A DNA stretch of 46,820 nt, taken from NCBI GenBank assembly GCA_031285845.1, contig JAITVK010000008.1:1-46820 (forward strand), given 5' to 3'. The stretch comes from Propionibacteriaceae bacterium. Its GTDB lineage: Bacteria; Actinomycetota; Actinomycetes; Propionibacteriales; Propionibacteriaceae. Shown piece by piece: positions 37,017-38,833 of the stretch. Every line of letters begins with the position of its first letter. Position 1 is the stretch's first letter. The position numbers were made by a program, and so were the translations under genes. The notes under the pieces are model-generated. The model ran no database searches, was not told where the DNA came from, and saw only the letters and a program-made list of their open reading frames with translations.

Positions 37017-37120
37017 ACCCGTGGGCCGCCTCCCTCCTGGGCCGAGCCGGGTTGAGACATGACCGTGATATGATTCCGGTTCATTGGTGAACACCGATCG
37101 ACAAACCTGGGGGAGAGTCA

Positions 37121-38833
37121 ATGGGGGACGAGACGAACGACGTTGATCCTGCGGTCATGTCGATGCCTGACGCCGGTGTGCTCGACCTCAGCGACGAAGA
37201 CTTGGTCGAGAACACTCGCGAAGGATCGATCGCCGCTTTCGAAGAGCTATGGCAACGCCACTCCGCTTTCGGCTTGATCGCGGCATCCGCACAGGGTCGC
37301 GAACAGGCCGACGTCATCAACACCACCGCGTGGCAGTCGATTCTGGCCCAGATCCACGCTGGCGAGCACCCGAGCGGTGGTTTCCGTCCGCTGATGTACG
37401 CCCAGATTCGGCGAGCCGGTTTGGATGCTGGAGCACCCGAGGATCCCGATGACACCATTCAGCGTTCAGCCGTACGCCTGGCCGACGCCCTGTCGACCTT
37501 GCCACCACGGTGGCAAGAAGTCCTGTGGTATCTCGACGTGGAGAAGATGAGCGTCGACGACGTCGGATTGCTCACCAACGTCGCGGTCGACGACATCCCA
37601 GACATTCGTACGCGCGCTCGACGCGGCTTGTCAGACGCCTGGCTGAAAATGAGCGCTGACGAGGTTGAACCCGACGCTCCGTGTCACTGGGTGCGCCAAC
37701 ACATGCGGGCGTACGTCAAGCAGACTCTGCCACCGCGCGACGTCGAAGCCGTCGATCATCACCTGACGCTGTGTCAGCAATGCCGCAACATCATGACGAT
37801 CACCCGCTCCATGGGAATCCACGTGCCCGCGCTGTTGCTCGCCGGTGTGGCCGGATCAGCCGCCGGCGAGGCGCTCGACGGCTACCTGGAGGCCAACGGT
37901 CCGATCATCATCAACGACGCCGCCCTGCCCGGGCCTGTGGCCGCCGCGTTCGCGGCCGAAGCCTCTGCCCCAGCGCCGGAGAACATCCGCGCCGAACATC
38001 GTCCCCAGACCTGGGTCGAACAAGAGAAACGTCGTCGGGGCAAGGGCGCGATGTGGATCGCCGCACTCATCCTTCTGGCTTTGCTGGCCGCGATTTTGAC
38101 CGTGGCGTGGTTGGGCTCACGTGGAGCTGAACCGGGCGCCGATCCCACCACGGCGTCGACGACTCCCACCACCACAGACAGCGACAGCGCCAGTCCCACC
38201 CCAGAATCGACGCCGACCCCCACGCCGACACCAACGCCGACACCCACCCCAACACCGACCCCCACGCCGACACCGACCCCGACTCCCACCGAGGAACCCA
38301 CACAGTCAGAACCCGAGCCAGCTCCGGAGCCGCCGCCGGCGCCAACCGCCGCCATCGGCTCGATCGACAACGGTGGCGGCTCGCTGATGCCCGTCATCTC
38401 CGGTCGGGCTGATCCAGGAGAAACTGTCACCGTCAGCGTCGGCGGCGTCTCGTCGACTGTCATCGCCGACACCGACGGCAACTGGTCAGCTTCCGGCCCC
38501 TTCGACGGTGTCAGCGCTGGCCCGAACGAGGTCGTGGTGACCAGTGAGAACAGTCCCACCCCCATCACTTCCACTGTTGACATCGCCGCTCCAGCCAATG
38601 TCAACGTGGTCGGCAACTCCGGGCAGGTCACCTTCACCATCCAAGGCCAGCCGAACGCCACGGTTCAGGTCATGGCCGATCAGCTCGGCTCCCAGTTGGT
38701 CACACTCGACGGCTCCGGTTCAGGCAGCGCATTGATGGAGGTCGGCGCTGGACAGCATGCCATCACCTGGCGCTACTACAACGCCGGGCGCTTCGGTCTG
38801 ACCGGTGGACCGATGATCACTGACGTCTCCTAA
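37121..38833 (+). CDS. ECF-type sigma factor fused to zinc-finger, membrane helix and extracellular domain
   Basis: 570 residues. 1-110: region 2-like (DLVENTREGSIAAFEELWQR). 112-172: region 4-like, with LSTLPPRWQEVLWYL and the HTH-like SVDDVGLLTNVAVDDIPDIR. 185-230: anti-sigma-type zinc finger, H214-x3-C218-x2-C221. 311-333: membrane helix WIAALILLALLAAILTVAWL. 364-390: 27-residue Thr-Pro repeat. 400-570: beta-rich outer domain (ISGRADPGETVTVSV), probably Ig-like. Sigma and anti-sigma functions are therefore on one chain tethered to the membrane, with an outer sensor. Similar layouts are known in some actinobacterial ECF groups (ECF52-like). Ribosome site GGGGGAG before the ATG; TATGAT at 37069-37074 may be its -10. 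How the sigma part would be released is not visible. Confidence 0.85.
   Translation: MGDETNDVDPAVMSMPDAGVLDLSDEDLVENTREGSIAAFEELWQRHSAFGLIAASAQGREQADVINTTAWQSILAQIHAGEHPSGGFRPLMYAQIRRAGLDAGAPEDPDDTIQRSAVRLADALSTLPPRWQEVLWYLDVEKMSVDDVGLLTNVAVDDIPDIRTRARRGLSDAWLKMSADEVEPDAPCHWVRQHMRAYVKQTLPPRDVEAVDHHLTLCQQCRNIMTITRSMGIHVPALLLAGVAGSAAGEALDGYLEANGPIIINDAALPGPVAAAFAAEASAPAPENIRAEHRPQTWVEQEKRRRGKGAMWIAALILLALLAAILTVAWLGSRGAEPGADPTTASTTPTTTDSDSASPTPESTPTPTPTPTPTPTPTPTPTPTPTPTPTEEPTQSEPEPAPEPPPAPTAAIGSIDNGGGSLMPVISGRADPGETVTVSVGGVSSTVIADTDGNWSASGPFDGVSAGPNEVVVTSENSPTPITSTVDIAAPANVNVVGNSGQVTFTIQGQPNATVQVMADQLGSQLVTLDGSGSGSALMEVGAGQHAITWRYYNAGRFGLTGGPMITDVS
38210..38290 (+). repeat. Thr-Pro coding repeat in the sigma-fusion linker
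   Basis: 81 bp of ACN-CCN codons encode T(PT)13. The unit is 6 bp, so slippage would change length in frame. It spans the likely cell wall between the membrane helix and the outer domain. Confidence 0.9.

What the first reader, a model, noticed from the sequence alone, without database searches (positions are those of the whole stretch)
37121..38833. One-chain sigma factor, anti-sigma zinc finger, membrane helix and extracellular sensor
The sequence shows, in order, sigma region 2-like and 4-like segments, an H-x3-C-x2-C zinc finger, one membrane helix, a 27-residue Thr-Pro spacer and a ~170-residue beta-rich outer domain. Normally an ECF sigma factor and its membrane anti-sigma are separate proteins. 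Here the sensor, inhibitor and sigma factor would share one polypeptide, so signalling must act by conformational change or by proteolytic release of the sigma part. Some actinobacterial ECF groups (ECF52-like) are known with comparable C-terminal extensions; the mechanism is poorly understood. The ectodomain could sense cell wall or matrix.
Basis: partly seen in the sequence, partly recalled or inferred. Interest (0 to 1): 0.75.

Follow-up and report, generated by a model that had tools for sequence, protein, structure and literature searches.

The report
Membrane-anchored sigma look-alike lacking its linker
A bacterial membrane protein carries on its inner side a folded relative of a gene-switching sigma factor fused to its own inhibitor, but the connector that such factors need to work on RNA polymerase has shrunk to almost nothing, so it probably signals in another way.

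Summary
ORF 37121-38833 encodes a sigma2-like domain, a sigma4-like domain, a ZAS zinc finger (H214-x3-C218-x2-C221), one membrane helix, a 27-residue Thr-Pro run and two Ig-like outer domains. One-chain sigma/anti-sigma proteins of this plan are known (ECF52, SCO4117), and release by proteolysis is already proposed in print, so the architecture alone is not new.

What is new: this clade no longer looks like a working sigma factor. In its genus it occurs as sister paralogues A (window) and B; a more distant family, D, has no ZAS. Between landmarks in regions 2.3 and 4.1, 37 of 38 canonical one-chain relatives have 59-70 residues (one has 52); A has 40-48, B 39-41. The predicted structure (pLDDT 91.7) leaves 8 residues between the sigma2 and sigma4 helices; published M. 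tuberculosis sigL uses 20 fully extended ones, and deleting the sigH linker abolishes transcription. Pfam region 2 is found in 2/12 A, 0/10 B and 19/20 canonical proteins. Yet close pairs show purifying selection on the domains. Best reading: a sigma-derived membrane signalling module, not a conventional sigma factor. Its partner is unknown.

The parts
37066..37074 (+). Extended -10 promoter-like element TGATATGAT, 55 bases before the start codon
   Evidence: Pattern TGrTAkrvT lies within 250 bases upstream of 10 of 12 A-type genes (mean 0.18, maximum 3 of 12 in 300 mononucleotide shuffles), 0 of 10 B and 0 of 19 canonical. The pattern was chosen after looking at the upstream sequences.
37121..38833 (+). 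Gene of the one-chain protein (570 aa), type A
   Evidence: A-type genes in 11 of 19 genomes of the genus
37187..37426 (+). Sigma region 2-like domain, residues 23-102; region 2.2 and 2.4 signatures eroded
   Evidence: AF2 helices 25-33, 37-58, 60-79, 88-102; fold matches; no Pfam Sigma70_r2 match
37427..37450 (+). Connector between the sigma2-like and sigma4-like domains, residues 103-110, 8 residues only
   Evidence: gap between helices 88-102 and 111-124 in the model; F88-W136 spacing 48 against 59-70 in 37 of 38 canonical relatives
37451..37660 (+). Sigma region 4-like domain, residues 111-180; region 4.1 stretch RWQEVLWYLDVEKM strongly conserved in A
37679..37897 (+). ZAS-type anti-sigma domain, residues 187-259; C188, H214-x3-C218-x2-C221
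   Evidence: zf-HC2 E=5.8e-6; zf-HC2 found in 12 of 12 A proteins
37898..38047 (+). Juxtamembrane stretch, residues 260-309; it begins inside an A-conserved stretch around NGP-x-x-IN...LP
   Evidence: alignment A1; helix 271-282 in the model
38048..38116 (+). Single membrane helix, about residues 310-332, preceded by KRRRGK
   Evidence: hydropathy maximum 2.82 at 313-331; sequence
38117..38344 (+). Outer spacer rich in Pro, Thr, Ser and Glu, holding the 27-residue Thr-Pro run (residues 364-390)
38345..38830 (+). Ectodomain: two tandem Ig-like beta domains (about residues 411-488 and 493-569), shared with paralogue B
   Evidence: alignment A6 of 18 A and B ectodomains; model pLDDT 94.8, pTM 0.85; Foldseek best 7dm0_A Bap C region E=9.3e-8, then SiiE 2yn3; Pfam Big_13 in 6 of 12 A, not in the window protein; 3 of the 12 are cut before this part

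Best explanation
A membrane-anchored pseudo-sigma. It descends from a one-chain ECF sigma/anti-sigma/sensor of the kind found across Propionibacteriales, but the sigma part has become a compact protein-binding module that can no longer place region 2 on a -10 element and region 4 on a -35 element at the same time. Shown by computation: ancestry, domain order, shortening of the connector, erosion of region 2, conservation of region 4.1 and of the ZAS in A, purifying selection in close pairs. Inferred: inside the cell the sigma2-like, sigma4-like and ZAS parts sit as one closed bundle at the membrane; outside, two Ig-like domains on a Pro/Thr stalk contact cell surface or matrix; contact, pull or cleavage opens the bundle and exposes the ZAS or the conserved region 4.1 face to a partner in trans (another ECF sigma factor, another ECF's anti-sigma, or the RNA polymerase beta flap), so that the protein regulates transcription by competition and not by directing polymerase itself. 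The partner is not identified.
For: Spacing between the conserved F of region 2.3 (F88) and W of region 4.1 (W136): A 40-48 (11 proteins), A-like second copy 40 (1), B 39-41 (10); canonical relatives of the same family 59-70 (18 of 19, the other being L084 with 52), and in other families 65-66 (19, after dropping L119 and L120, which repeat L052 and L016). Model connector 8 residues. Published passages read: sigL bridges with 20 fully extended residues (PMC6372665); deleting the sigH linker, or replacing it with disordered sequence, abolishes transcription (PMC6411747). Pfam Sigma70_r2 at E<=0.1: A 2/12, B 0/10, canonical 19/20; which one was missed was not listed, probably L031, whose region 2 my script had cut away. 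Net charge of the 20 residues from F88: A mean 0.58 (-2 to 3), B 0.40 (-2 to 2), canonical 3.21 (0 to 4) and 4.05 (3 to 5). A and B are one clade, SH-aLRT 98, on a tree built without the linker columns. Purifying selection: dN/dS of the region 20-260 is 0.095, 0.077, 0.085 and 0.078 in the four closest A or B pairs tried; sigma2 alone 0.027-0.117; the one canonical pair gave 0.188. A third family, D, has by eye an even shorter connector in the alignment and no HxxxCxxC (12 of 12 ORFs), yet is homologous (hhalign E=3.4e-18 with 8 of the 12). D is found at full length in 10 of 11 A-bearing genomes and in 0 of the 8 others.
Against: The sigma fold is kept. NCBIfam sigma models still touch the protein (E=4.1e-8). 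Pfam silence partly reflects divergence. Charge ranges overlap; region 4.2 net charge does not differ (A 0.67, B 1.5; canonical 1.79 and 0.79), and acidic residues in region 2.2 fall only slightly (3.4 and 3.5 against 4.2 and 4.1). Helices flanking the connector might partly unwind and lend residues; I did not model a canonical relative for comparison and had no coordinates to measure distances. No orphan sigma factor for a trans role was found: of the four genes of this genome with regions 2 and 4 both over the Pfam cut-off (C4, C5, C7, C36), three have a neighbouring membrane or transport gene that could be their regulator (judged by eye) and the one at C36 has a zinc-finger frame beside it. 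No experiment on this clade is known to me. Family D keeps the sigma-like part without a ZAS, and zf-HC2 is found in only 4 of 10 B, so a role centred on the ZAS cannot be general. Window-L006 gives dN/dS 0.30, L046-L078 0.17, and sigma4 in L043-L081 0.28; dS is saturated in several pairs.
Confidence: 0.55

Rival explanations
1. Conventional one-chain ECF sigma of the ECF52 type: the outer domain senses, proteolysis or a conformational change frees the sigma part from its ZAS, and it directs polymerase to a regulon.
For: Same domain order as ECF52 (PMC5826349; PMC8999054); both sigma domains are predicted; purifying selection; match to the canonical one-chain profile at E=4.7e-42; region 4.2 charge unchanged.
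Against: Connector of 8 residues against 20 in sigL; spacing 39-48 in the 22 A and B proteins against 52-70 in 38 canonical ones; region 2 not found by Pfam in 20 of 22 A/B proteins at E<=0.1; loss of positive charge in the 2.3-2.4 helix; an extended -10 element upstream of 10 of 12 A genes suggests transcription by the main sigma factor, though autoregulation was not tested.
Confidence: 0.2
2. Half-sigma: only the region 4-like part meets RNA polymerase (beta flap). It either tethers or blocks polymerase, or forms a composite sigma in trans with a protein giving region 2, as in the SigO-RsoA pair (recalled; seen here only as a title in a reference list).
For: Region 4.1 is one of the two dense runs of invariant residues in A (P128, W131, Q132, E133, W136, Y137, E141, M143; the other is E42 to S48 in the first sigma2 helix); A, B and D occur together in 9 of 11 A-bearing genomes.
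Against: A, B and D all have eroded region 2, so none is an obvious partner; the same region 4 face might also bind the ZAS, which would explain its conservation. Co-occurrence may only reflect one subclade.
Confidence: 0.15
3. Decaying remnant: a former sigma factor losing its function under relaxed selection.
For: Eroded region 2; two of 10 B proteins have also lost HxxxCxxC; D lacks the ZAS altogether.
Against: Open frames; dN/dS 0.03-0.12 for sigma2 in the four closest pairs; neighbours kept in 11 of 11 A loci counting the window (at least one of folD, pepM3, a small gene, mdh) and a dsbA-like gene next to B in 10 of 10.
Confidence: 0.05

Closest known systems
ECF52 one-chain sigma factors (SCO4117 of Streptomyces coelicolor)
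   Same: Sigma2, sigma4, zinc finger (pfam13490), membrane helix, proline-rich spacer and C-terminal outer domain in one chain; Actinobacteria (passages of PMC5826349).
   Different: SCO4117 has a recognised ECF domain and an outer carbohydrate-binding module (smart00776). Here region 2 is eroded, the sigma2-sigma4 linker is nearly gone, and the outer part is two Ig-like domains. I had no SCO4117 sequence to compare.
Canonical one-chain relatives in Propionibacteriales (e.g. L052, L121-L139)
   Same: Homologous over sigma2, sigma4 and ZAS (E=1.4e-46 profile to profile).
   Different: They keep acidic region 2.2 (such as DADDLVSEAF) and YL...VRN or VRR signatures and a 59-70 residue spacing.
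PhyR sigma-like domain (sigma factor mimicry, NepR-EcfG system)
   Same: A sigma-fold domain that works by protein competition and not as a sigma factor; PhyR chains appear among the Foldseek matches at E=0.088 and weaker, below several true ECF sigma factors.
   Different: PhyR is a response regulator of Alphaproteobacteria (passages of PMC8999054); no receiver domain here, and the sigma-like part is membrane-tied and fused to a ZAS.
ECF48, ECF53 and IutY (ECF243) fused sigma/anti-sigma proteins
   Same: Sigma fused to a membrane anti-sigma portion; IutY is released by regulated proteolysis (passages of PMC8999054).
   Different: Those are treated as working sigma factors; no truncated linker is described in the passages read.

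Membership tests
ECF sigma factor (group IV) | sigma2 and sigma4 folds | tested here: met
   AF2 model and structural matches; family profile
ECF sigma factor (group IV) | Region 2 sequence signature recognised by the curated model | tested here: not met
   No Pfam Sigma70_r2 match at E<=1 for the window; 2 of 12 A and 0 of 10 B at E<=0.1
ECF sigma factor (group IV) | sigma2-sigma4 linker able to pass through the polymerase cleft (20 residues in sigL) | tested here: not met
   8 residues in the model, F-W spacing 48 against 59-70 in 37 of 38 canonical; yardstick from PMC6372665. The judgement that 8 cannot span is inference.
ECF sigma factor (group IV) | Directs promoter-specific transcription | not testable with these tools
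   needs biochemistry
ECF52 | C-terminal zinc finger, membrane helix and proline-rich outer stretch | tested here: met
ECF52 | Outer carbohydrate-binding domain | tested here: inconclusive
   No such Pfam family in the window protein; among 12 A proteins one CBM60 hit (best E=0.037) and three CE2_N hits (best E=0.002); the fold is Ig-like, which does not exclude sugar binding
ECF52 | Found in Actinobacteria | tested here: met
   the same-genus relative L006 is named a Propionibacteriaceae MAG (lineage)
ECF52 | Assignment by the published ECF classifier | not tested
   classifier not available; the classification paper is not held
ZAS anti-sigma domain | H-x3-C-x2-C with a further upstream ligand | tested here: met
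   C188, H214, C218, C221; all four columns invariant in the 12 A proteins, L044 having one residue inserted between the last two
ZAS anti-sigma domain | Packs on and inhibits a sigma factor | tested here: inconclusive
   pTM 0.83 for the whole 1-300 model suggests one compact unit; no coordinates or interface scores were available
PhyR-type sigma mimic | Sigma-like domain linked to a receiver domain | tested here: not met
   no receiver domain in Pfam
PhyR-type sigma mimic | Binds an anti-sigma in place of the sigma factor | not testable with these tools
   needs binding assays

The most novel reading that the evidence does not exclude
A new class of membrane receptor in which a sigma-factor fold has been turned from a polymerase subunit into a signalling domain by deletion of its interdomain linker, as two sister paralogues (A, B) and a more distant family without an anti-sigma domain (D), all seen in one genus of Propionibacteriaceae.
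Probability: 0.5. Interest if true: 0.75.

Novelty: new variant of a known kind. Interest (0 to 1): 0.5.

Why it matters
If right, it shows a route by which a sigma factor stops being one: fused to its own inhibitor, it can lose its polymerase-specific features and remain as a conserved membrane signalling fold. It also gives a natural test of the rule, drawn from the sigL and sigH structures and linker mutants of sigH, that the ECF sigma2-sigma4 linker is indispensable. Practically, it warns that one-chain sigma/anti-sigma genes in Actinobacteria cannot be annotated as sigma factors from architecture alone; the distance between regions 2.3 and 4.1 is a quick check.

Tried and rejected
Pfam alone on the window protein would have left region 2 unproven; replaced by family profiles. 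Reading the degeneration as a sequencing or assembly accident: rejected, because it recurs in 22 A/B proteins with conserved neighbours. Reading it as decay: rejected by dN/dS (seven pairs tried), with the caveats that this is a simple Nei-Gojobori count, that dS is saturated in some pairs, and that the window's own pair gave 0.30. Canonical L045 lies next to ahcY, which is near the A locus in the window, but order and orientation differ, so I do not claim it as the positional ancestor. Search for an orphan sigma partner: none clear (gene roles there judged by eye from the ORFs; L108 was fetched but not read). The names folD, ahcY, mdh, valS, dsbA-like, pepM3 and the DUF3107-like label are mine, recalled from reading the ORFs; no family search named them. 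One scan of named genomes gave one relative, L006, whose contig is that of G145. Papers: search listings and passages of PMC5826349, PMC8999054, PMC6411747, PMC6372665 and PMC8103513; nothing in those passages or listings describes degenerate or linker-less one-chain sigma proteins, which is not proof of absence; the ECF reclassification paper could not be read. Rows dropped: L031 from the spacing table and tree; L119 and L120 as repeats of L052 and L016 (and by hand from the list); L020 trimmed at its N-terminus; L020 and L031 left out of alignments A4 and A5, L084 also out of A5; two D rows with long upstream extensions, and neither L106 ORF used, in A9.

Full report
WHAT IS THERE. ORF 37121-38833 on the + strand encodes 570 residues. 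Pfam finds zf-HC2 at 188-222 (E=5.8e-6) and a partial, sub-threshold Sigma70_r4_2 at 119-156 (E=0.018); it finds no Sigma70_r2 at E<=1. NCBIfam sigma models touch 23-94 (E=4.1e-8) and 26-171 (E=8.1e-4), far below their cut-offs. The sigma ancestry is nevertheless firm: a profile of 17 canonical one-chain relatives matches the window gene at E=4.7e-42, and family profile against family profile gives E=1.4e-46 over 230 columns including the ZAS. A profile of 40 relatives led by the window protein finds solved ECF sigma factors (best 6in7_B, E=3.3e-15) and solved ZAS anti-sigmas (3hug_B E=2.7e-5, ChrR 2q1z_B E=3.2e-5, RsiW 5wuq_C E=0.0044); the window's first 240 residues alone reach only E=0.34 against solved chains.

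RELATIVES. In the 19 genomes of the genus held, A-type genes occur in 11. Ten of those also carry paralogue B (28-34% identical; between a dsbA-like gene and valS); G126 has a second A-like copy and no B was found. G021 and G060 have a canonical-looking relative, L084 in G021 being divergent (spacing 52, no HxxxCxxC, long branch), and six genomes gave no match to the window query. With the canonical profile all 19 genomes gave matches, many of them apparently ordinary ECF genes. Neighbour names are mine, from reading the ORFs. A loci keep at least one of folD, pepM3, a small DUF3107-like gene or mdh in 11 of 11 counting the window; B loci keep the dsbA-like gene in 10 of 10 and valS in 9 of 10. 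At order level 224 of 391 genomes have a match at E<=1e-10; of the loci that this call returned, the 21 outside A (19 new) are canonical. Besides A and B there is D: own genome C16 (L096), full-length matches in 10 of 11 A-bearing genomes and 0 of 8 others. D has no HxxxCxxC in 12 of 12 ORFs, no Pfam match in the 4 of 12 scanned, and is homologous by hhalign (8 of the 12 aligned; E=3.4e-18 to the canonical profile; E=3e-10 to A). Nine of the 11 genomes carry A, B and D together. Co-occurrence may only mean that these genomes form one subclade.

THE KEY DIFFERENCE. Between the conserved F of region 2.3 (F88) and W of region 4.1 (W136), canonical one-chain relatives of the same family have 59-70 residues (18 of 19; L084 has 52) and those of other families 65-66 (19 loci after dropping two repeats). 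A has 40-48 (11 of 11), the A-like second copy 40, and B 39-41 (10 of 10); the ranges do not overlap. Three solved ECF sigma factors give 70-77 by the same count. Pfam region 2 is found at E<=0.1 in 2 of 12 A, 0 of 10 B and 19 of 20 canonical proteins; region 4 (Sigma70_r4_2) in 9 of 12, 6 of 10 and 19 of 20; zf-HC2 in 12 of 12, 4 of 10 and 17 of 20. The canonical acidic region 2.2 (as DADDLVSEAF) and YL...VRN or VRR signatures become VNT-x-AW and YLYS-x-I without the basic run in A, and net charge of the 20 residues from F88 falls from means of 3.2 and 4.1 to 0.6 and 0.4. Other measures differ little: acidic residues in region 2.2 go from 4.1-4.2 to 3.4-3.5, and region 4.2 net charge does not change. 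Region 4.1 and the RAR-x-x-L helix remain in A.

WHY IT MATTERS FOR MECHANISM. In M. tuberculosis sigL the connector is 20 residues, fully extended, and runs through the active-centre cleft and the RNA exit channel (passages of PMC6372665). Deleting the sigH connector, or replacing it with disordered sequence, abolishes transcription (passages of PMC6411747). Eight residues cannot follow that path unless flanking helices unwind. This is inference from published structures; I could not measure distances.

NOT A RELIC. Seven pairs were tried. In the four closest A or B pairs dN/dS for residues 20-260 is 0.077-0.095 and for sigma2 alone 0.027-0.117; sigma4 alone is 0.031-0.094 in three and 0.281 in L043-L081. 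The other A pairs gave 0.17 (L046-L078) and 0.30 (window-L006); the canonical pair L052-L016 gave 0.19. dS exceeds 1 in four of the seven pairs, so those ratios are rough. A and B form one clade (SH-aLRT 98) and B is one clade (98); A with its second copy is one clade (99) on the quick tree without linker columns. That fits one loss of the linker before the A/B split, although no test of a single origin was run and D was not in the tree.

EXPRESSION. Ten of 12 A genes have TGrTAkrvT within 250 bases upstream (0.18 expected in mononucleotide shuffles), resembling an extended -10 element of the main sigma factor (recalled consensus); none of 10 B and 19 canonical genes has it. The pattern was picked after viewing the sequences, so the figure overstates its strength. 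B lies directly behind the dsbA-like gene. Autoregulation by an ECF-type promoter was not tested.

KNOWN WORK. ECF52 proteins carry this order (SCO4117), with a carbohydrate-binding outer module, and release by proteolysis or conformational change was proposed there (passages of PMC5826349; PMC8999054). Because two tested features of a working ECF sigma factor (region 2 signature, linker) are not met, and no carbohydrate-binding family was found in the window protein, I call it a homologue of that group but do not file it as a member. In way of working the nearest idea is sigma mimicry as in PhyR, which is an analogy, not kinship.

VERDICT. Observation confirmed; interpretation partly supported. 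The best reading is a membrane-anchored, sigma-derived signalling module (0.55); a conventional one-chain sigma factor remains possible (0.2), as does use of the region 4 half alone (0.15).

Noticed in passing
L096:4308-5882 (own genome C16): Third, more distant paralogue D: sigma-like N-terminus, no zinc finger, a hydrophobic segment, long Thr/Pro/Asp tail; no Pfam match. Members in G126 (C25), G075 and G149 are short ORFs (221-233 aa) without a clear membrane helix.
   Followed up: partly
L037:6979-8592 (own genome C6): Paralogue B between a DsbA-like gene and valS (names by eye); shares the Ig-like ectodomain with the window protein. Two of 10 B members (L043, L081) have lost the HxxxCxxC motif.
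   Followed up: partly
G126:C127:12985-13542: A 302-aa open frame matching only the ectodomain part of the B profile, perhaps a contig-split B gene or a free-standing ectodomain.
   Followed up: no
L078:1733-4132 and L079:1308-3767: Stretches between the ZAS and the membrane helix differ greatly in length among A proteins (total 568 to 820 aa in the nine complete ones) and are Pro/Ala-rich in these two.
   Followed up: no
L141:398-3491 (own genome C5): An ECF-like gene overlapping a 765-aa gene with an N-terminal stretch, a hydrophobic segment and a long remainder; looks like a sigma/anti-sigma pair with a large ectodomain (judged by eye).
   Followed up: no
L084:5683-7863 (G021): Canonical-looking relative with intermediate spacing (52) and no HxxxCxxC, on a very long branch; may be an independent step toward the same loss.
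   Followed up: no
G108:C24:1432-1938 (L107): A 334-aa frame matching the sigma part of the canonical profile at E=1.3e-36 but not its ZAS part, in a genome without A, B or D; fetched, not read.
   Followed up: no
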